38,660 nt of DNA from Candidatus Sulfotelmatobacter sp. (GTDB taxonomy: Bacteria > Acidobacteriota > Terriglobia > Terriglobales > Acidobacteriaceae), in assembly GCA_030040965.1 (NCBI GenBank), contig JASHOT010000342.1, forward strand, positions 1-38,660. Reading direction: 5' to 3'. This document shows positions 2,936 to 14,174 of this stretch, one piece after another. Below the pieces are notes generated by a model, which was not told where the DNA came from, ran no database searches, and worked only from the letters and a program-made list of their open reading frames with translations. Each line of letters starts with the position of its first letter. Positions within the stretch are counted from its first letter, which is position 1. Position numbers and translations under genes: made by a program.

Positions 2936-5287
2936 ATGCGTGACAACCATCACAACATTCCATCACAACATTCCGTGGCCGAGGTCACAGACTCGACAGA
3001 ACAAGATTTTCCAGCGCAGCTTGCAACTCGGCCTGATCTCGAACCCCACAACGAAGGAAGAACCCTCTGCCCCGCAGGCAACACCCCCGTCAGAAGAATT
3101 ATTGCTGCACGTCGGCGGCATGTGGTGCACTTCCTGCACCTGGCTGGTGGAACATGCATTAGGCGGGATGCCGGGTGTGATCAAGGTGGAAGTTTCTTTC
3201 GCTGCAGATTTGGCGAAAGTGCAATACCAGCCTCAAATACTGGCGCCAGAACGCATCATTGATCGCATCAACAGTCTCGGTTACAAGGCCAGCAAATATT
3301 CCACGCACAATGATCGCGCCGATGCCGAACGGCGCGACCTCATCATCCGCACTGGATTGGCTGCCTTCCTCTGGGCCAACGTTATGAGTTTCAGCCTCGT
3401 CTTCTATGCGGGCTACTTCGAACAGATTTCCGGAAGCGTCGGGCGCCGGTCTGCCCTGCGTGGCGCGGCTTGCTCCATCGCACGATTCGCATGGAGTCGC
3501 TGCTCTCTTTGGGTATTCTTGCAGCTTACGGATTCAGCGTGGTGCAAACATTCCGCGGGCAGATTCATCTTTACTGCGACACAGCTTCAGTAATCGTCGC
3601 ACTCGTTCTTGCGGGCAAGCTCATTGAGCGAAACGCAAAAGAAAAAGTATCCGAGTGGATTTCCCAGTTGCATCGCATGCTGCCCAACAAAGCACGCCTG
3701 CTCAGTAACGGCGCAGAACATTTCGTTAGCGTGGAGGCGTTGATTCCGGGGCAAAGCTTTATCGTCAAGGCGGGAGAAAGAATTCCCGCCGATGGTGTCG
3801 TCGTGACGGGCGACTCCCACGCCGACGAATCTCTGCTCACTGGGGAGTCCTTGCCAGTGCGAAAGGCACCCGGCCACAAAGTTGCCTCCGGCACCATTAA
3901 CCTCGACGGCGTACTTACTGTGGAGGCGACAAAGTCCGCGAACGAGTCTTCCTTGTCGCGCATAATTGCGTTGGTGGAGCGGGCGCTTGGCAGCCGTTCA
4001 GACCTGGAGCGCACCGCCGACAAAGTTTCCCGGGTCTTTGTTCCGGTCGTGATCGTGATCGCGGGGCTCACATTTGTTGTTACGTGGATGTCAGGTACGG
4101 CTGCCCTCGCGCCGGCATTGATGCGAGCCATTACCGTGCTGGTGATCGCTTGTCCGTGCGCGCTCGGGCTGGCAACCCCGTTGGCCATTACGGCGGCATT
4201 CGGTGCGGCGTCGCGGCGAGGAGTGCTCGTCGGTGACGGGCGGGTACTGGAACAATTGCGCAAAGTCGACGCGATCGTTTTCGACAAAACCGGAACTGTC
4301 ACGGAAGGCAAGTTTTCTCTCTTAGAGTTCGTATCGTGCAATCAGCCTCAAGTAGCGTTTGCAGTCGCCGGCTCGGGCAGGCGCGCTGGCTTAGCCGAAC
4401 TCTCGCCTGCTCAAACTTGCAACCCGCCAGAAGAAAATCTGCTGGCACTTGTGGCCTCGGTCGAGCAAAGTTCTGAACATCCGCTCGGACGAGCCATTGT
4501 GGAGCACGCTCGCGAACAGCGCATTCTGCTGCATGATGCCCACAGAGTTGAAATTTACAAAGGACGTGGCCATTACCGGCCTGGTCCGTGGCCACAATGT
4601 TTTTGCTGGCAACCGCCGTATGGTCGAAGAACTCAGCATTCAGATGGACCAGGCAGCCAACCAACAAGCTCATCAATGGGAGCGAGAGGGCAAAACAGTG
4701 TCGTTCATGGGCTGGAATGGCGAAGTTCGCGCCGTAGCTTCTTTTGGAGACAACCTCCGACCCGAAGCCGTCGGCCTGATTGTGGAATTGAAGCAGCACG
4801 GCCTGGAAACGCGCCTCATTTCCGGCGATTCTCGCGCCACAACAAGGTGGATCGCGTCACGACTCGGTGTGGACTCCTTCGAAGCTGAAGTTTTGCCGGA
4901 AGCGAAAGTGGATGCAATCCGACGTTTCCAGGAAAGAGGCGGCGTCGTTGCCATGGTCGGGGACGGAATTAACGATGCCCCTGCCCTGGCTCAGGCCGAT
5001 CTCGGCATCGCCATGGGCTCAGGAACGGATATTGCGATGAAAGCAGCCGCCGTCGTGCTCATCAATAACTCGCTGCGCAAAATCCTTGACGTCTTCGATT
5101 TGGCGGAGGTCACGGTCCGCGTCGTTCGGCAAAATCTTTTCTGGGCATTTTTCTATAACACGGTTGGAATCACGCTAGCCGTGCTTGGTGTCCTGAATCC
5201 GATCATGGCTGCCTCGGGCATGTTGCTCTCAGTTTTTCAGTCGTGGCCAACTCGATGCGCCTCGCGCGAAACTCTGGGCCGACCTAA
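2936..5287 (+). pseudogene. copper-type P1B ATPase, disrupted by several indels
   Basis: Three overlapping reading frames together encode one heavy-metal P-type ATPase. The first frame (to about 3425) carries an HMA domain with the metal site GGMWCTSC and the start of the membrane domain. The second (about 3440-4570) has TGES, the transport motif ACPCALG, the phosphorylation site FDKTGTVT and SEHPLG. The third (about 4570-5235) has GDGINDAPAL and the last helices. The first junction loses roughly 25 residues including most of a helix; the second is explained by one extra C in the CC at 4570-4571; a third at the T5 run 5233-5237 needs one more T to restore the usual VVANS tail ending at 5287. 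A 13-bp tandem duplication at 2948-2973 also puts the only upstream ATG (2936) out of frame. CPC and the Cys-rich HMA indicate Cu(I) export in the intact ancestor. Neighbouring long genes are intact, which favours true decay over base-calling error. Confidence 0.82.
2948..2973. repeat. 13-bp perfect tandem duplication
   Basis: CATCACAACATTC occurs twice head to tail. It lies between the ATG at 2936 and the HMA domain of the broken copper ATPase. Removing one copy joins that ATG to the HMA reading frame, so the duplication is a plausible frameshifting lesion. It could alternatively be a direct-repeat operator between the divergent genes. Confidence 0.8.
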
Positions 5288-5389
5288 GCCGGCTCCACCT
5301 TTGGCTTCCCACGGGCTCAAACATCGTAATGATTGACTCCTGCCAACTTTCACTTAGAATTCGGCTGCTGCAGGCGAAAGGATTCTGCC

Positions 5390-6805
5390 ATGAACGTGCA
5401 AACAGATAAAACTTCGGCCACTGCTGAAACCGGATTGGTTCGAGTCGGTCTTGGACTGGCGAGCTGGAGCGAGAAGTGGTTTCCAGATCCCCTGGTATTC
5501 GCGCTGCTCGGCATTGTCGTGGTTTTTATCGCCGGCCTCGCACTTCACGAAAGTCCTGCGAACCTTGCCATTCAGGGAGGCAAAAGCTTTTGGGTTCTGG
5601 TTCCCTTCACCATGCAGATGGTAATGATCATCATCGGCGGCTACGTGGTTGCATCCACGCCGATTGTGCGATGGGTCATCCGGGCACTCGCGTCGGTGCC
5701 GACGAAGCCAAAAACTGCCGTCGCTCTCATCGCGCTGTTCTCCATGTTGACTTCGCTGATTTCGTGGGGTTTGAGCCTGATCTTCAGTGGACTTCTGGCG
5801 CGTGAGATGTCATATCGCGTCAAGGGAATGGATTATCGCGCGGCCGGCGCTGCCGCTTATCTAGGGCTCGGCGCGGTCTGGGCCATGGGAATGTCTTCTT
5901 CCGCCGCCATGCTCATGGCAACCAAGTCGGCGATGCCGCCCACCTTGTTCAACATCAGCGGCTTGATTCCTCTCACCCAAACTCTTTTTCTTTGGCAAAG
6001 TATCGCCACAACTTTCGTGCTGATTGTTGTCTCGGTGCTGGTCGCCTATTGCTCTACTCCATCTGCGGAAAATGCAAAAACAGCCGAGTCCTATGGCATC
6101 CAGCGCGAACCGATCGCCTCCACCCTGGGAAGCAGGAGCAAGCCCGGTGAATGGCTGGAGTACAGTCCACTTCTAACGATTCTGGTTGCCGCGCTTCTTT
6201 GCTGGTACCTGATCGACATGTTTCGCACCTCGCCTGTGGGAGCTCGCGCTGCGCTTGATTTAAACAACTACAACCTGATCTTTATCGCCATTGGATTGCT
6301 GCTGCAATGGCGGCCAAAGCGCTTTATGCAGGCGGTTAACGAATCTGTTCCCGCGACCGGAGGAGTGCTGATTCAATTTCCTTTTTATGCTGTGATTTTT
6401 GGAATGATCAGCGGGACCAGCATTTCCGCGGTCTTGGCCAGATTGTTTGCCTCGGTCAGCACGCACAAGACCTATTCGTTACTGGTCGCGATGTATTCGG
6501 CGGTCCTGGGAATTTTTGTTCCCTCCGGCGGCAGTAAGTGGGTGATCGAAGCGCCCTACATTTTGCAGGCCGCGACCTTGCATCAGGTGCATCTGGGATG
6601 GGTGGTGCAGATCTATAACGCGTCGGAAGCCCTGCCCAATCTTGTCAATCCGTTTTGGATGCTGCCCCTGCTCAGCATTCTCAAGCTGAAAGCGCGCGAT
6701 ATTGTGGGATATGGCACCCTGCAGTTAATCGTTCATATTCCAATCGTATTTTTCCTGTGTTGGCTCTTCGCTCAGTACATTCCGTATGTGCCGCCGATGA
6801 AGTAA
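5390..6805 (+). CDS. atoE: short-chain fatty acid transporter, AtoE family
   Basis: 471 residues from an ATG at 5390 with AAAGGA eight bases upstream; the frame is open further 5' but that start lacks a site. The protein is almost wholly hydrophobic with about 11-12 helices and matches the AtoE-type short-chain fatty acid permease family: an N-terminal EKWFPDPLVFALLG, central MGMSSSAAMLMATKS, and C-terminal FVPSGGSKWVIEAPYI followed by YNASEALPNLVNPFWMLPLL. Family members import acetoacetate, butyrate or related acids across the inner membrane. No CoA-transferase or thiolase genes lie beside it. It is convergent with the lactate permease gene only 33 bases away, an adjacency of two organic acid carriers. 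Exact substrate is not shown. Confidence 0.88.
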   Translation: MNVQTDKTSATAETGLVRVGLGLASWSEKWFPDPLVFALLGIVVVFIAGLALHESPANLAIQGGKSFWVLVPFTMQMVMIIIGGYVVASTPIVRWVIRALASVPTKPKTAVALIALFSMLTSLISWGLSLIFSGLLAREMSYRVKGMDYRAAGAAAYLGLGAVWAMGMSSSAAMLMATKSAMPPTLFNISGLIPLTQTLFLWQSIATTFVLIVVSVLVAYCSTPSAENAKTAESYGIQREPIASTLGSRSKPGEWLEYSPLLTILVAALLCWYLIDMFRTSPVGARAALDLNNYNLIFIAIGLLLQWRPKRFMQAVNESVPATGGVLIQFPFYAVIFGMISGTSISAVLARLFASVSTHKTYSLLVAMYSAVLGIFVPSGGSKWVIEAPYILQAATLHQVHLGWVVQIYNASEALPNLVNPFWMLPLLSILKLKARDIVGYGTLQLIVHIPIVFFLCWLFAQYIPYVPPMK

Positions 6806-6838
6806 CGAATCGAATGTTGTTCGAAACTGGAGCACGGG

Positions 6839-8671
6839 TCACTGCACAACCAGGCGCGTGAATGGCGGTACGTAGGCCTGAAGAAAGACCAAAATTCCCA
6901 CCAGGCACGCCAGCGCGATGCTGTGCCAGAACACATAGCGCAGAATGTCGCCTTCGTGTCCATACCACTCGGTGGCGGTGCTGGCGACGACGATGCTTTG
7001 CGCATCGATCATCTTGCCCATCACGCCGCCCGAACTATTCGCTGCAGCCATCAAGGTGGGCGAGATCCCAATCTGCTGGGCGGAAATTTTCTGCAGACTT
7101 CCGAACAACACGTTCGATGAAGTGTCCGACCCGGTGAGCGCCACACCGAGCCAACCCAGCAAAGTTCCGAAAAAGGGATAAAAATGTCCCGTGCGCGCAA
7201 AAGCCAAACCCATCGTGGCATCCACGCCCGAGTAGCGCGTGAGAATGCCGAGCGACATCATCGCTGCGATCGTGAATAAGGAAAAGCGCACATGCCATAC
7301 CGTCTGCCACCACATCACCACCATCTTTGGAAGCGATAGTCCCATGATGAAGCCCGAGATTATGGCTGCCAGCAGGATTCCCGAACCGGTGGCCGAAATC
7401 CAGTTCAACCCGAAGACGGCGGCCTCGGCCGTCGGCTTCGGAACGACCGGCGGAACGCGTTGCACAAGCTTGTTAAGGCCGGGAACCGGGATTTGCGGAT
7501 TCGTAATTTTGCTGGGCGGCGTCGACCACGCACTCATGGATTGAAATACTTTTTCCGGCGTGTTCATGATCTTCTTGCCGGTTTGGGTTCCCCAGCAGAA
7601 GACGAGCACGCTCAGCACCAGCCAGGGCAACCATGCGCTCACAACTTCCGAGCGGCTGTAGCCGTGTGCACCGCGCGCGGTGCGCGATTGTTCCTGAGCG
7701 CCTTCGTGTCCCCAGATTACCTTCGGCTGCCATATTTTCAGGAACAGAATCAGGCAAACCATCGAGCAAAGCGCGGCGATAATATCCGTCAGCCAGGGCC
7801 CGTGTAAGTTTGAGACCAGGAACTGTGGTACCGCAAAGGTGATGCCGGCCACGGCGATCGGCGGCCAGATTTCTTTCATTCCTTTGAAGCCTGCATAAGC
7901 CCACACCAGCCAGAACGGCACCAGCACGGAGAAGAATGGCAAGATTCGTCCTACTTGCGCGCCGAGCGCAACTTCGCTGAATCCTGTCATCGCGGCCAAA
8001 GCAATAATGGGCGTAGCCAACGCACCGTAAGCCACGGGCGCCGTGTTGGCAATCAAAGACAATCCTGAGGCCTGCAGCGGCTTGAATCCGAGTCCGATGA
8101 GCAATGCCGCCGTCACAGCGACCGGCGTGCCAAATCCTGATGCGCCTTCGAAAAAAGCGCCAAACGAAAACGCTATGAGCAGCAGCTGCAGCCGGGTGTC
8201 TTGTGTAATGCCGGTCATGCTTTCCTGCAGAACCTTGAAGCGTCCGGTGGCGCAGGTCATGCGGTACAAAAAGATGACGTTCAAAATGATCCAGCCGATG
8301 GGAAAAAGGCCGTAGCACGCACCATAAATCGCGGTGATGCTCGCCATTTTGAGCGGCATATGAAATAGGCCACAAGCCACCACCAACGCGGTAACCAGTC
8401 CGAGAAAGGCGGAGTAGTGTGCCTTCATGCGGAAGAGGGCGAGAGTTCCCAGCAGCACAACCACAGGCAAGGTCGCGCAAATCGTCGAGAGCCACCAATG
8501 ACCGAGCGGATCGTATCCCTGCGACCAGGGCGCGGTGCGCGAATTTCCTGACCAGGCAAAAACAAGTATGCCCACGCTCACCAGCGCCATCAAAATCGTC
8601 GGAACCGGACCTTCTTTTTCAGGAACGGAAGCGCCTGATTTGGTCTGCGGAGAACCTGTAGCGACGGCCAT
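6839..8671 (-). CDS. lctP: L-lactate permease, LctP family
   Basis: 610 residues from an ATG at 8671 preceded by GAGG; an in-frame start at 8731 has weaker support. The sequence has about 13-14 membrane helices and LctP hallmarks: FSFGAFFEGASGFGTPVAVT, LIANTAPVAYGALATPI, TGSDTSSNVLFGSLQ and the C-terminal NSSGGVMGKMIDAQSIVVA. Family proteins are proton symporters for lactate and glycolate in the inner membrane. The polar loop around residues 355-440 is long and proline-rich. A TATACT -10-like hexamer lies upstream around 8748-8753 on the minus strand but no good -35 partner was found. No lactate dehydrogenase or utilisation genes are beside it, so the role is inferred from the family. Confidence 0.92.
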   Translation of the reverse strand: MAVATGSPQTKSGASVPEKEGPVPTILMALVSVGILVFAWSGNSRTAPWSQGYDPLGHWWLSTICATLPVVVLLGTLALFRMKAHYSAFLGLVTALVVACGLFHMPLKMASITAIYGACYGLFPIGWIILNVIFLYRMTCATGRFKVLQESMTGITQDTRLQLLLIAFSFGAFFEGASGFGTPVAVTAALLIGLGFKPLQASGLSLIANTAPVAYGALATPIIALAAMTGFSEVALGAQVGRILPFFSVLVPFWLVWAYAGFKGMKEIWPPIAVAGITFAVPQFLVSNLHGPWLTDIIAALCSMVCLILFLKIWQPKVIWGHEGAQEQSRTARGAHGYSRSEVVSAWLPWLVLSVLVFCWGTQTGKKIMNTPEKVFQSMSAWSTPPSKITNPQIPVPGLNKLVQRVPPVVPKPTAEAAVFGLNWISATGSGILLAAIISGFIMGLSLPKMVVMWWQTVWHVRFSLFTIAAMMSLGILTRYSGVDATMGLAFARTGHFYPFFGTLLGWLGVALTGSDTSSNVLFGSLQKISAQQIGISPTLMAAANSSGGVMGKMIDAQSIVVASTATEWYGHEGDILRYVFWHSIALACLVGILVFLQAYVPPFTRLVVQ

Positions 8672-8826
8672 ATAGCACCTCGCAAAGGGCGAACTAACCA
8701 GCACCGGAAGCTGACTTGTCCCGGCTGGCACTGAATTCGACTGCGAGAGTATATAGGATTACAGAAAAAACGCTAGGACCAAACGCACAGTGCCAATTCC
8801 CAATTGCCGGCCAATTCTGTGGCAGG

Positions 8827-11025
8827 TCAGCGCTGATCGAAAAGTTCGCTTCGATCGATGCGTTCGCCTTTGAAGACTACAAGCGAAATTCTTTCAGTCG
8901 CGGAGATGTCTTCCAGCGGATTTCCGTCGACGACCAATAGATCGGCGTCGTTTCCGGGCTGGATGGAACCAATTCTCTTTTCGGCACGAAGCAGGCGGGC
9001 GGCGTTGTAGGTAGCCGCCTGTAACGCCACAGAGGGCGCGATCCCAGCCTGCACCCAGAGCTCGATTTCGTGCTGCACCGTCGGCCCATGAATCACCAGA
9101 AGATTTCCCGCGTCGCTCCCTGTGACCAGCAGAACACCGTGTTGCTGGGCCCGCTTCAGATTCTCGATCGCCACTTGCATGTCGATCGGATATTTGGCCG
9201 CGGTCTGACGCATCGCTTCGGTGTCTTTCGATGTCAGCGCATCCTCGGTTGCCCGCAAGAGCTCAGGCGGACCGACCTGCTGCACCAGCGACCGCTTCAA
9301 CAACCGATCCTTGCCGGCGACAAAATCGAGCGTGGCCTCTCCGGCACTTAGCGTGGGATCGTAGAATGTTCCGTGCTTCGCCATTTGCTCGAACAGTGGG
9401 TCGGGGATCTCCTGGCGAAACGAACCGTGCTCAATGGAGTTCGCCCCTGCCTCAACGGCGTCAGCGACGTCGCGTGCATCTCCGGTATGAACGGCAAGTG
9501 GCAGCCCATCCGCAAGTGCGGCGCGGGCCACAGTATCAAAGATACCGACGTCAAGACGGTTAAATACGGTTTCCCCTCCGCCCGCTTCCAGAATCGCCTT
9601 GATGCAATCAAGGTTTCGCTGCTTCAGCTCATCCACTTGCCTCTGTGCTTCCTCGGTTGAAGTCGGGAGCCGCAGCACTTGTTCCTCTACGCGTGAGCGA
9701 ATATTCGCCGGCAGATCTTTAAAAAACTCCGTACCATGTCCGCCCGCAGTCGTGAACATCGGGCCACATGCAAATAATTCCGCGCCTAGGTCCTGTCCAT
9801 CCCGTATCTCGGAGCGCACCTTCAATATTCCGTCGAGATCATCGCCAACGCTTCGGACTGTCGTTACGCCGCTGTATAGATAGGCTGCCAACTCGCGCAG
9901 CTTACGTTTTTCACGGTCCTCACTATCGCTTTGCGAATCGAACCCCCCCGACGGACTCAGATGAACGTGAACATCAATCAGCCCGGGAAGAATCGTTTTG
10001 CCCACCGCTTCGACTGCTTCCGCTTTCAGAGACTTGGGATCGGGACCATCGCCCTCGTAAACTTCGGCGATCTTTCCGCCGCGCACCAGCACGCTTCCGG
10101 TTTCAATCACCTTGCCATTTCCCACAAAAATGCGCGCGCCGCGAATTAGAAAGGTGTCACCGCGAGCGAGTTGCCGCGCCAGAAGCTTGGTTTCAACAAT
10201 GCCTTGCCGCGTGTGCATTTGCCACGCCCCGAGCAGCAAGAACGGCGTCAACACGGCCGCCAGCCACAGCTTCGCCGAGGGACGAATCTTCTCTTCTTTT
10301 TCCCAGCGAAACAGCTTAAAGGCGATGAACAGACCGACGGCAGTAGTGAGCAGCAAAGCCAGCGTGGGCTGAATGATTGTCCTGATTCCGCTATTCCAGG
10401 AAAGCAGGCTCTGAATGCCCGTCACCATGTATCGAGCCGGGACGAACAACGTCACCACCTGCAGCCAGGGCGGGAACATGGAGGGAGGAAATGTCGCTCC
10501 ACTCAGAAACAGCATTGGAAGATAGATGAGCTGCACGACGAGCTGACTTTCCTGCATCGAGTTCACAACCGAGGCGATGATCATGCCGATGGCGCGGAAA
10601 CCAGCGATCGCGACCGTGACAAAAAGAAAAATCAAGCCAATCGACTGCGGCCATGGCATCCCGTATAAAGTGTGCGCGAGCACGAAAATGAGGATGACGT
10701 TCGGCATGTACAGGATCCAGCCGGTTACCACCGAAGCAACCAGCAACGGCAGCGGCGTGATCGGCGTGACCTTGTAACGGCGTAGAATATTGGCTTCGCG
10801 CTCTTGCACCGCCCGAATCCCCGCGCCGAACAGGCCATTTCCGAGAATGCCGATCACCAGCACCATGCCGATTACCACGGTCATGGCTGCCCCGCGCTCG
10901 GCATGCATCGCCTGGCCGAAAATAAAGAAAAAGATCAGGGGAAACAAATAATTAAAGAAGATGACAGACCGCTGGCGAAGCGCCAGTTTCAGATCCAAAG
11001 CGATCAATGCCTTGTAACTCTTCAT
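8827..11025 (-). CDS. ABC-2 type permease fused to a metal-dependent amidohydrolase
   Basis: 732 residues in one uninterrupted frame. Residues 1-240 are an ABC-2 permease with six hydrophobic segments and the family phrases QEREANILRRYKVTPI and LSGATFPPSMFPPWLQ. A further helix spans about 252-270 (LWLAAVLTPFLLLGAWQM). Residues 290-730 are an imidazolonepropionase/prolidase-like amidohydrolase: HxH at 353/355 (DVHVHLS), a candidate carbamylated Lys476 (CIKAIL), His513 (AVHTGD), His533 (IEHGS) and Asp638 (GSDAG), then the closing beta-sandwich strand (DADLLVVDGNPL). All metal ligands are present, so the enzyme should be active. Predicted topology cannot be settled by eye, so the side of the enzyme domain is uncertain. 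The partner ATPase gene lies 10 bases upstream in the same direction. The substrate is unknown; a secreted peptide or cyclic amide is only a guess. Confidence 0.88.
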   Translation of the reverse strand: MKSYKALIALDLKLALRQRSVIFFNYLFPLIFFFIFGQAMHAERGAAMTVVIGMVLVIGILGNGLFGAGIRAVQEREANILRRYKVTPITPLPLLVASVVTGWILYMPNVILIFVLAHTLYGMPWPQSIGLIFLFVTVAIAGFRAIGMIIASVVNSMQESQLVVQLIYLPMLFLSGATFPPSMFPPWLQVVTLFVPARYMVTGIQSLLSWNSGIRTIIQPTLALLLTTAVGLFIAFKLFRWEKEEKIRPSAKLWLAAVLTPFLLLGAWQMHTRQGIVETKLLARQLARGDTFLIRGARIFVGNGKVIETGSVLVRGGKIAEVYEGDGPDPKSLKAEAVEAVGKTILPGLIDVHVHLSPSGGFDSQSDSEDREKRKLRELAAYLYSGVTTVRSVGDDLDGILKVRSEIRDGQDLGAELFACGPMFTTAGGHGTEFFKDLPANIRSRVEEQVLRLPTSTEEAQRQVDELKQRNLDCIKAILEAGGGETVFNRLDVGIFDTVARAALADGLPLAVHTGDARDVADAVEAGANSIEHGSFRQEIPDPLFEQMAKHGTFYDPTLSAGEATLDFVAGKDRLLKRSLVQQVGPPELLRATEDALTSKDTEAMRQTAAKYPIDMQVAIENLKRAQQHGVLLVTGSDAGNLLVIHGPTVQHEIELWVQAGIAPSVALQAATYNAARLLRAEKRIGSIQPGNDADLLVVDGNPLEDISATERISLVVFKGERIDRSELFDQR

Positions 11026-11035
11026 GATTCTTGAC

Positions 11036-11965
11036 TCATTGGCGCAAGCTCTTGCCGGTGAGCTCGATGAACACGTCTTCCAAACTCGGCTGCTTCAGGC
11101 GCACGTCCGTCAATTCCATTTCCTGCTGATCGATCCACTTGACCAAATCGACCAATGTCGCCGCCGGACGCCGCGAGTGAACGGTCAGTGTGTGTCCGGA
11201 CGAATCGAGCGTGCTCTCGGTCGCTTCCACCCAGGTCGGACGAGACGCAGGAAATGGCGCCGCACAGGTTACCACGATGCTCGATGCGCTGCGGCTTTGC
11301 TGCTGCAGACGAGCCGGAGTATCGAGCGCGATGATGCGGCCTTCGTCGACAATTGCAACCCGATCACAAAGACGTTCTGCTTCTTCGATGTAGTGCGTAG
11401 TCAGCAGAATAGTGCGCTGCTCGCGCTTTAACTCCTCGAGCAGGGAATGAATCTCCGCGCGCACTTGCGGGTCAAGACCGGTCGTGGGCTCGTCCAGGAA
11501 AATAAGCTGCGGATCGTTCAGCAGCGCCAGAGCCAGCGCCAGCCGCTGCTTTTGACCGCCTGACAGAGTTCCGTAGAATGCATTTTTCTTCTCGTCCATC
11601 TGCAGGCGCTTGAGGAGTTGATGCAAATCGACATGGCGCGTGTAGAACGAGGCGAAGACTTCCATCGCTTCGTGCACGCGAATTTTTTCCGGCAAATTGG
11701 TCGCCTGTAGACACACGCCAATTCTGTCTTTCAATTTTTGGCGCTGCCTGTCCGGATCGAATCCCAGCACAGCGACGTTTCCGCCGCTACGCGCGCGGAG
11801 TCCCTCCAGAATTTCAACTGTTGTGGTCTTGCCTGCGCCGTTTGGCCCGAGAAGGCCGAAGACCTCGCCCGTGTGGATTTCGAAGTCGATACCCTTTACG
11901 GCTTGTACTTCGCCGTACGACTTCGTCAGTCCTTGCACAGAGATGGCCAGAGAAGTAGCGATCAT
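11036..11965 (-). CDS. ABC transporter ATP-binding protein (exporter type, DrrA/CcmA-like)
   Basis: 309 residues. Walker A is GPNGAGKTTT (about residue 40), the Q-loop is CLQATNLP, the signature is LSGGQKQRLALALAL, Walker B is LIFLDEPTTGLDP and the switch His is in LLTTHYIEEAE. A C-terminal extension of about 80 residues ends with the typical SLEDVFIELTGKSLR of drug and polysaccharide exporters. It is the first gene of a two-gene unit: its stop is 10 bases before the start of the permease-amidohydrolase fusion, so the two form one exporter in which the fusion supplies the membrane part. The cargo cannot be read from sequence. No ribosome binding site of note was found before the ATG at 11965. 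Confidence 0.93.
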   Translation of the reverse strand: MIATSLAISVQGLTKSYGEVQAVKGIDFEIHTGEVFGLLGPNGAGKTTTVEILEGLRARSGGNVAVLGFDPDRQRQKLKDRIGVCLQATNLPEKIRVHEAMEVFASFYTRHVDLHQLLKRLQMDEKKNAFYGTLSGGQKQRLALALALLNDPQLIFLDEPTTGLDPQVRAEIHSLLEELKREQRTILLTTHYIEEAERLCDRVAIVDEGRIIALDTPARLQQQSRSASSIVVTCAAPFPASRPTWVEATESTLDSSGHTLTVHSRRPAATLVDLVKWIDQQEMELTDVRLKQPSLEDVFIELTGKSLRQ

Positions 11966-12051: not shown

Positions 12052-12603
12052 TCAGCTGAGACGTGCCTGGGAGTCGTCGACCGGCCGCCGCTCCCACCAA
12101 ATACGCGGCGCCTGGACAACTGGCTTTTTCTCGCAATGGAAACCGCGCCGCCCTAACTCTTCGACGACTAGATCGATGGCCCGGCTGACGGAGGCCCGAA
12201 CTGCATCACTCAGCGGCTGACCGGGATCAAAGCATGTTCCTACGATTCCCACAAGCAGGAAGTCTCGGGGCGCTGCGCCCAGCATGTCCGCGGCGATCAG
12301 ACATTCCGACAAAGCGGGCGAATGAGGATCTAACCGCTGGGCAGTGATCTCCCGGACAATGTCTTCCTTTCGATAAAGAATGACGGAGCCGACTGAAGCG
12401 TCGTCGACTACGGAATCAACAAGAATGACGGCGTCTAATCCGGCGATCCGATGGGTCAAATCGAGAGCGGGCGTGCCCAGATCCGCGATCTCAACACCCT
12501 CACCGAATGAGTACTGTGCCTCGAGCATGTGCACTACATACGGACCGACGGCGTCATCCCCCAGCAGGACGTTACCGATGCCGCCGATGAGCGCTCGTTT
12601 CAC
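12052..12603 (-). CDS. hydrogenase maturation protease (HyaD/HybD family)
   Basis: 183 residues starting at a GTG whose first bases overlap the TGA stop of the large subunit gene (GTGA), so translation is probably coupled. It has the family N-terminus GIGNVLLGDDAVGPYV with the first nickel-sensing acidic residue, IADLGTPALDL with the second, and PHSPALSE with the metal-binding His. These endopeptidases clip the C-terminal tail of the [NiFe] large subunit after nickel insertion. The adjacent large subunit has the matching uncut tail after DPCMACACH, so enzyme and substrate are encoded together. The C-terminal 25 residues (CEKKPVVQAPRIWWERRPVD) extend beyond the usual family length. It appears intact. 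Confidence 0.9.
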   Translation of the reverse strand: MKRALIGGIGNVLLGDDAVGPYVVHMLEAQYSFGEGVEIADLGTPALDLTHRIAGLDAVILVDSVVDDASVGSVILYRKEDIVREITAQRLDPHSPALSECLIAADMLGAAPRDFLLVGIVGTCFDPGQPLSDAVRASVSRAIDLVVEELGRRGFHCEKKPVVQAPRIWWERRPVDDSQARLS

Positions 12604-14174
12604 AGAATCTTGGTCACGCCAATCTTACGTCCAGACGGATCGAACGCGTGGCAGGCGCAAGCCATGCAGGGATCGAAGGAGTGCACCGTCCGCAGCACTT
12701 CCAACGGTTCCTCCGGACGCGCCAGCGGAGTATGCAGCAGCGAAGCTTCATACGGCCCATGCGCTCCCGCATGGTCCCTCGGGCTCGCGTTCCAGGTCGA
12801 AGGAACCACCGCCTGATAATTCTTGATCTTCTCGTCCTTGATGACCACCCAATGCGACAGCGTTCCGCGCGGCGCCTCGTGCGTTCCCACGCCTTGCACT
12901 TCATGTGACGGCAGCACGGGCTGATTGTGGACAGTGTAATCGCCCTTCGAAATGTTATCCACCAGCAACTGCCAATGTTTCTGCGCCAGTTCCGCCAGCA
13001 TGCAGGCGCGAATGGCGCGTGCCGCATGGCGTCCAAGCGTGGAATGAAGCGCCGCAGGCGTGGCACGAACTCCGCCGATCGCCGCAATTTTTTCAACCGC
13101 CAGATCCGTATATTTGCGCGTCAAAGGATGTCCTTGCGCGTATCCGATCAGCACCTGCGCCAACGGTCCGACCTGCGCCGGTTCATTGTTGAATCGCGGA
13201 CTCTTTACCCATGAGTATTTTCCGTCCGCATTCCACCCGGTAAAGGCAGGTTCGGTCTCTCCTACCCATGGATGCAGCGGCCGATCACCCTGATAGTAAG
13301 CGTGAGCCACGTCTTCACTCACCGATTGCCGGAAGATCGGGTCCGACGCCGTCTGAAATCCGTGCACGGCCGACAGATCTCCATCGTGAATGTAGCCGCC
13401 CGGCAGGTCATAAGCGGAGCCGCGGCTATCCAGTGGAAGATCGGGCACCGCGAGATAGTTGCGCACTCCACTGCCGATCTTGAACCACTCCGGATACATC
13501 GCTGCCACCGCGCACACGTCCACGAAATAGACCTGCTGCACGAACTGCACAACTTCATCCAGCAAGGTGCGGATCAGTTCCAGCTTATCCATGCCCAGCG
13601 CCGAAGTGCTGTCGAGATCGATCGCATTGGCGACTCCTCCCACCGTCAGGTTCTGAATGTGCGGAGTCTTTGAGCCCAGGATTCCCACCACCTGCAGCGC
13701 CTTGCGCTGATATTCGAGCGCCTGCACATAATGCGAGAAAGCCAGCAGATTGATGTCAGGTGAGAGACGCATCGCCGGATGCCCCCAATAGCCGTTGGCA
13801 AAAATCCCCAGCTGTCCGCTTGCTGCAACCGCATTGACGCGATCCTGCGCCGCTTTGAGTTCGTTGCGCGAGTTGCGAGTCCACGGCGACAGGCTCTCGG
13901 CGAGTTTTGACGTCGCTGCGGGGTCCGCCTTCGGAATCTGCAGCACATCGACCCAATCGAGCGCCGGCAACTGATAGAAGTGCACAATATGGTCGTGCAA
14001 GGCATGCGCGATCAGAATCAGATTGCGGATGTATTGCGCGTTGAGCGGGATTTCCAGCTTGAGGGCATCTTCCACCGAGCGCACGCTGGCCATGGCATGC
14101 ACGGTGGTGCATACCCCGCAGAAGCGCTGCGTAAACAGCCATGCGTCGCGCGGATCGCGCCCGCGGCTGATGTT
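12600..14174 (-). CDS. [NiFe]-hydrogenase large subunit, group 1-like, missing its N-terminus
   Basis: The first formal start (GTG, 14102) would begin at VHAMASVRSVED, but the same frame upstream encodes SRGRDPRDAWLFTQRFCGVC, which holds the first Ni-Fe cysteine pair and clearly belongs to the protein. Homology fades above 14174; the frame stays open to a TAA at 14316-14318 with no ATG, GTG or TTG, and the usual VDPVTRIEGH block is absent. The rest is complete: IFANGYWGHPAM, and C-terminal DPCMACACH with the second cysteine pair, followed by a 15-residue tail for protease removal. The protein would be about 525 residues against ~570-600 in the family. No small subunit, cytochrome b or hyp genes are present. 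Either the 5' end was lost by deletion or an assembly join lies near 14175-14190. Activity without a small subunit is unlikely. Confidence 0.82.
   Translation of the reverse strand, partial: NISRGRDPRDAWLFTQRFCGVCTTVHAMASVRSVEDALKLEIPLNAQYIRNLILIAHALHDHIVHFYQLPALDWVDVLQIPKADPAATSKLAESLSPWTRNSRNELKAAQDRVNAVAASGQLGIFANGYWGHPAMRLSPDINLLAFSHYVQALEYQRKALQVVGILGSKTPHIQNLTVGGVANAIDLDSTSALGMDKLELIRTLLDEVVQFVQQVYFVDVCAVAAMYPEWFKIGSGVRNYLAVPDLPLDSRGSAYDLPGGYIHDGDLSAVHGFQTASDPIFRQSVSEDVAHAYYQGDRPLHPWVGETEPAFTGWNADGKYSWVKSPRFNNEPAQVGPLAQVLIGYAQGHPLTRKYTDLAVEKIAAIGGVRATPAALHSTLGRHAARAIRACMLAELAQKHWQLLVDNISKGDYTVHNQPVLPSHEVQGVGTHEAPRGTLSHWVVIKDEKIKNYQAVVPSTWNASPRDHAGAHGPYEASLLHTPLARPEEPLEVLRTVHSFDPCMACACHAFDPSGRKIGVTKIL

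What the first reader, a model, noticed from the sequence alone, without database searches (positions are those of the whole stretch)
8827..11965. ABC-2 exporter permease fused to a metal-dependent amidohydrolase
One uninterrupted 732-residue frame joins a six-helix ABC-2 permease, an extra helix near residues 252-270 and a complete amidohydrolase with HxH 353/355, Lys476, His513, His533 and Asp638. A cognate ABC ATPase lies 10 bases upstream. An exporter carrying its own hydrolase could process its cargo during or after export. Fusion is directly seen; coupled processing is inference.
Basis: partly seen in the sequence, partly recalled or inferred. Interest (0 to 1): 0.7.

Follow-up and report, generated by a model that had tools for sequence, protein, structure and literature searches.

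The report
Exporter permease with built-in periplasmic hydrolase
A soil bacterium's drug-type exporter carries a metal-dependent, peptide-trimming enzyme on its tail; the fused gene is real, ancient and shared by dozens of soil species, and in about a dozen lineages the enzyme part has lost its active site or been lost altogether, while most of the inactivated copies are still under selection, so it probably does more than cut.

Summary
The fusion is real: one 732-residue minus-strand frame (8827-11025) joins an ABC-2 permease to a complete binuclear amidohydrolase, 10 bases after its ATPase gene. It is no assembly artefact: 76 complete copies were found in other species of Acidobacteriota and Verrucomicrobiota (49-80% identical), each with the ATPase next door wherever the contig reaches. 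AlphaFold2 and Foldseek confirm a Wzm/ABCG-type permease and an Xaa-Pro-dipeptidase/ochratoxinase-like hydrolase. The 252-270 helix is not part of the join: unfused relatives also have it. As a seventh transmembrane helix it should place the hydrolase outside the cytoplasm; the nearest stand-alone relatives mostly carry signal peptides or anchors. Related hydrolases were fused to such permeases more than once and also sit beside ABC genes, so the link is functional. Unexpectedly, among 63 class-wide permeases of this clade only 35 keep all six metal ligands; 23 keep a ligand-poor or core-deleted domain, four lack it, one is frameshifted. The tree implies about 13 losses, and dead domains remain under purifying selection (dN/dS 0.09-0.40). 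I conclude: a new variant of the exporter-plus-peptidase kind. Trimming of exported cargo is the leading idea but unproven; a non-catalytic accessory role is a serious rival or addition.

The parts
8827..11025 (-). fusion gene: ABC-2 permease + TM7 + amidohydrolase, 732 aa (stop codon included)
10282..11025 (-). ABC-2 permease core, residues 1-248 (amphipathic N-helix, TM1-TM6, re-entrant helices 186-209, conserved FRWEKEE at 239-245)
   Evidence: Pfam; AF2; Foldseek to Wzm, KpsM, NosY, ABCG
10210..10281 (-). seventh transmembrane helix, residues 249-272 (hydrophobic 253-271)
   Evidence: AF2; mean Kyte-Doolittle 1.58 over 126 sequences; also in unfused relatives L018-L020 and L161
8830..10155 (-). 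amidohydrolase domain, residues 291-732 (composite beta sandwich plus barrel)
   Evidence: Pfam; PDB 2qs8 E 4.6e-37; Foldseek 2qs8 E 2e-26, TMt 0.86
9961..9969 (-). codons 353-355, HxH metal ligands
9598..9600 (-). codon K476, expected carboxylated bridging lysine
   Evidence: carboxylation by analogy to PMC11342369
9487..9489 (-). codon H513, metal ligand
9427..9429 (-). codon H533, metal ligand
9112..9114 (-). codon D638, metal ligand / catalytic Asp
9358..9759 (-). residues 423-556: barrel half carrying K476, H513 and H533, the stretch deleted in several relatives (intact here)
11036..11965 (-). cognate ABC ATPase, DrrA-like, 309 aa
   Evidence: universally conserved neighbour

Best explanation
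It is a two-gene ABC-2 export system. Two copies of the ATPase drive two copies of the permease. Each permease ends in a seventh transmembrane helix that carries a binuclear-metal amidohydrolase of the cog1228 type (Xaa-Pro dipeptidase / carboxypeptidase / ochratoxinase-like) to the outer face of the cytoplasmic membrane. In the window's species the hydrolase should be active and most likely removes a C-terminal amino acid from, or splits an amide of, a peptide-like or N-acyl-amino-acid compound leaving through or lying beside the exporter. In other lineages the domain has lost catalysis but is kept, so it also has a structural or regulatory role at the exporter's outer side. Shown: fusion, ATPase linkage, folds (predicted), ligand conservation, repeated fusion or adjacency, repeated active-site loss with retained selection. 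Inferred: dimer, outside location, activity. Speculative: that the substrate is the exported cargo.
For: Uninterrupted frame in many species. The ATPase is the only universally conserved neighbour, 61 of 61 long loci, and same-strand in 66 of 67 further loci; the exception, L174, begins at a contig edge. ABC-2 fold and cog1228-type hydrolase fold. All six ligands in 58 of 62 aligned fusions and 35 of 63 in the class-wide set. TM7 hydrophobic, N-in charge pattern for TM1-TM6. Most nearest stand-alone relatives have apparent signal peptides or lipoprotein signals, judged by eye. The ABC-adjacent split versions have N-terminal anchors: L105/L166 order ATPase-permease-hydrolase, L103/L165 hydrolase-ATPase-permease. 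A second fusion with a different hydrolase branch in L163/L225. Nearest characterised enzymes cut C-terminal residues or amino-acid amides (PMC11342369).
Against: No substrate or activity known. 23 of 63 permeases have a hydrolase domain with substituted or missing ligands and 4 have none, so catalysis is dispensable to the exporter in those lineages. Positive charges flank TM7 on both sides, so the positive-inside rule alone does not settle the hydrolase's location. The other conserved gene is only the ATPase, giving no cargo hint.
Confidence: 0.55

Rival explanations
1. The domain's main role is non-catalytic: an outer cap, adaptor or mechanical lever for the ABC-2 permease, comparable in principle to periplasmic NosD working with the ABC-2 transporter NosFY. 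Catalysis is an ancestral or optional extra.
For: About 13 separate losses or inactivations on the permease tree. Dead domains keep their frame and dN/dS of 0.09-0.40. Similar deletions of residues about 423-556 in several lineages, yet residues Q582/Q583 and H646-P648 are kept in nearly all dead copies. NosDFY is among the structural matches of the permease.
Against: Most fusions outside one family keep all six ligands (58 of 62 in the broad set), and intact pairs show strong constraint on the hydrolase (dN/dS 0.06-0.13). Four permeases do without any domain.
Confidence: 0.25
2. Tethering only: the hydrolase scavenges or detoxifies external peptides or amides and is fused merely to reach the membrane; its substrate has nothing to do with the exporter's cargo.
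For: Close relatives are free secreted enzymes. No conserved biosynthetic neighbour.
Against: At least two independent fusions to related ABC-2 permeases and further adjacency to ABC genes are unlikely for mere anchoring, since a signal anchor would suffice. Dead domains are kept.
Confidence: 0.15
3. The 249-272 helix lies at the membrane surface and the hydrolase is cytoplasmic, acting on cargo before export.
For: Helix broken at about residue 259, next to P261, with basic residues on both sides.
Against: Hydrophobicity equals that of TM5/TM6; most stand-alone relatives appear secreted and ABC-adjacent ones anchored.
Confidence: 0.05

Closest known systems
DrrAB-type ABC-2 exporters (NCBIfam TIGR01188 drrA, TIGR01247 drrB)
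   Same: ATPase and permease order, DrrA-like ATPase, ABC-2 permease
   Different: below both curated cut-offs; the permease has a seventh helix and a C-terminal hydrolase
cog1228 amidohydrolases: Xaa-Pro dipeptidase 2qs8, L-Arg/Lys carboxypeptidase Cc2672 3mtw, ochratoxin-degrading ADH3 8ihq, A. niger ochratoxinase 4c60
   Same: fold, HxH-K-H-H-D metal centre
   Different: about 28% identity or less; here fused to an exporter, and often degenerate in relatives
Peptidase-containing ABC exporters (C39 PCATs) and, from memory, ABC-2 permease fusions to M1 aminopeptidase or CPBP protease
   Same: one protein combines ABC export and peptidase (from established knowledge, not tested here)
   Different: other peptidase superfamily, C-terminal not N-terminal domain (PCATs), outer rather than cytoplasmic side inferred; the M1 case could not be confirmed here
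NosDFY
   Same: ABC-2 permease of the same fold working with a periplasmic protein (PDB 7o0y, 7znq, 7qba)
   Different: NosD is a separate protein; here the outer domain is fused and of amidohydrolase origin

Membership tests
ABC-2 exporter (type V / Wzm-ABCG fold) | ABC-2 transmembrane fold with cognate ATPase | tested here: met
   Pfam ABC2_membrane E 9e-22; Foldseek Wzm/KpsM/ABCG prob 1.0, E about 1e-4 to 1e-3; ATPase linkage
DrrAB daunorubicin-resistance subfamily | scores above the TIGR01188 and TIGR01247 cut-offs | tested here: not met
   262 vs 312 bits and 59 vs 223 bits
cog1228 amidohydrolase / prolidase-like | fold plus HxH, Lys, His, His, Asp metal centre | tested here: met
Xaa-Pro dipeptidase equivalog NF051886 | score above the curated cut-off | tested here: not met
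   169 vs 500 bits
cog1228 amidohydrolase / prolidase-like | metal-dependent hydrolysis of C-terminal amino-acid amides | not testable with these tools
   needs a biochemical assay
peptidase-containing exporters (functional kind) | peptidase domain processes exported cargo | not testable with these tools
   cargo unknown

The most novel reading that the evidence does not exclude
The fused hydrolase is being turned, again and again, into a non-catalytic outer subunit of an ABC-2 exporter: an enzyme recruited to trim cargo became a structural or gating part, so active and pseudoenzyme versions of one machine coexist across soil bacteria.
Probability: 0.35. Interest if true: 0.65.

Novelty: new variant of a known kind. 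Interest (0 to 1): 0.5.

Why it matters
It ties an orphan family of soil exporters to a chemically tractable enzyme: finding what the hydrolase cuts may reveal what the exporter moves. The many dead copies give a natural experiment on what an outer accessory domain does for an ABC-2 transporter.

Tried and rejected
Assembly or frameshift artefact: rejected, the same join is in dozens of species. Chance long frame: rejected, both domains are conserved and under selection. TM7 as a remnant of the hydrolase's own signal anchor: rejected, unfused permeases have it too (L018-L020; L161/L162). Conserved neighbours as a cargo clue: only the ATPase is universal. M1-peptidase fusions as a tested precedent: long M1 frames in the phylum showed no Pfam ABC2 domain, so inconclusive. 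G615 long frame: not a fusion, no hydrolase match. Literature: five searches of the held library gave no paper on this fusion; the library lacks most subscription papers. Folding a core-deleted relative was not attempted: those loci came from the genome search, which is not among the sources the folding tool lists as allowed.

Full report
Observation. The frame 8827-11025 on the minus strand encodes 732 residues from an ATG without interruption, and the ATPase frame 11036-11965 ends 10 bases before it. Pfam gives ABC2_membrane at 4-207 and Amidohydro_1 at 344-722; the neighbour is an ABC ATPase closest to DrrA but below that family's cut-off.

Is the join real? In the window's genus 12 of 37 genomes hold it, ten complete, at 73-80% identity. 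A scan of GTDB species genomes with patterns taken from the permease part alone (WILYMPN, FRWEKEE) returned 80 loci. 76 are complete uninterrupted fusions, three are cut by contig ends and one (L094) has an apparent frameshift. They are Acidobacteriota of the class Terriglobia and Verrucomicrobiota (Chthoniobacterales/Spartobacteria), 49-80% identical. The ATPase lies directly upstream on the same strand in every locus whose contig extends that far, and it is the only neighbour shared by all 61 long loci; 66 of 67 further loci have it and the exception begins at a contig edge.

Structure and place. AlphaFold2 with 62 fusions gives mean pLDDT 88.9 and pTM 0.85. The best PDB match of the whole model is Xaa-Pro dipeptidase 2qs8 (E 2e-26), with ochratoxin-degrading amidohydrolases, prolidases and Arg/Lys carboxypeptidases following. 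The permease modelled alone matches Wzm, KpsM, ABCG5/G8 and NosY. The helix 249-272 is as hydrophobic as TM5 and TM6 over 126 sequences, and loop charges fit an N-inside six-helix core. Unfused relatives, about 35% identical in the permease, also end in this helix. A seventh crossing puts the C-terminus outside. This agrees with the N-termini of the nearest stand-alone hydrolases, most of which look by eye like signal peptides or lipoprotein signals (no signal-peptide predictor was run). Both sides of the helix are basic, so an experiment is still needed.

Evolution of the link. On the hydrolase tree the main fusion group is one clade (support 100) with the fusion of L101 next to it. The fusions L163 and L225 use another hydrolase branch and so look like a second, independent fusion; these are quick trees without bootstrap. 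In L105/L166 the order is ATPase, permease, separate anchored hydrolase; in L103/L165 an anchored hydrolase gene precedes ABC ATPase and permease genes. L101, L163, L105 and L165 hydrolases carry an additional CIA30-like domain. Repeated fusion and adjacency support a functional partnership between these hydrolases and ABC-2 systems.

The unexpected part. A class-wide census with the permease alone (349 genomes) gave 63 permeases of at least 46% identity whose loci were examined. 35 have all six ligands. 7 are full length with one or more ligands replaced; two of these, L194 (HHRQHD) and L215 (HHKHYD), are mild and could be active. 16 lack ligands and a stretch of the barrel, 4 have no hydrolase and 1 is frameshifted. 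My count on the permease tree is 13 separate events inside the main clade; the tool's two-state parsimony count was also 13, on a slightly wider set of rows. Well supported branches alone force fewer, about 10. Similar stretches, roughly residues 423-556 with K476, H513 and H533, are missing in the large core-deleted clade and in L178, L184 and L218, which lie elsewhere in the tree, while Q582/Q583 and H646-P648 remain in nearly all dead copies. Between species, dead or truncated domains have dN/dS 0.09-0.40, against 0.06-0.13 in intact pairs where it could be computed (dS is high in several pairs, so values are rough). A 280-codon tail at dS near 0.9 would collect many stops without selection, so these domains are kept for something. 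The permeases of the same lineages are also somewhat less constrained, so a change of cargo there is possible.

Mechanism. For the window's species, with an intact active site, I favour an exporter with a tethered outer hydrolase that trims a peptide-like or N-acyl-amino-acid compound as it leaves or nearby. The choice of chemistry rests on the characterised relatives, which remove C-terminal residues or split amino-acid amides through two metals bridged by a carboxylated lysine (PMC11342369; a secreted metal-dependent bile salt hydrolase of the superfamily is described in PMC13081902). The dead copies show that this cannot be the whole story: the domain must also, or in some lineages only, serve as an outer accessory part.

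Known or new. Exporters joined to peptidases are a known kind, and the modules are both known families. I found no paper on this particular fusion in the held library. Uncultured and some cultured genomes already contain it. I rate it a new variant of a known kind.

Noticed in passing
window 3470-5336 (+): E1-E2 ATPase domain (3470-4888) and its HAD hydrolase half (4449-5336) lie in two overlapping frames: a P-type ATPase apparently split by a frameshift.
   Followed up: partly
window 12052-14102 (-): NiFe hydrogenase large subunit (E 2e-192) with its maturation protease directly upstream of the ABC genes in the same orientation; no small-subunit gene was seen next to it, but none was searched for.
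   Followed up: partly
window 5333-8731: Short-chain fatty acid transporter and L-lactate permease next to the ABC locus.
   Followed up: no
L163:1754-4465, L225, L101:931-3648: ABC-2 permease + amidohydrolase + CIA30-like three-domain proteins of about 870-900 aa (CIA30 tested in L163 and L101 only); L163 has a TolC-like efflux gene upstream, recognised by eye.
   Followed up: partly
L177: Fusion broken by a frameshift between permease/N-terminal hydrolase and the rest in G611; decay or assembly error.
   Followed up: no
L007:2327-3278 (same locus as L024): The ATPase gene appears split over two frames in this species.
   Followed up: no
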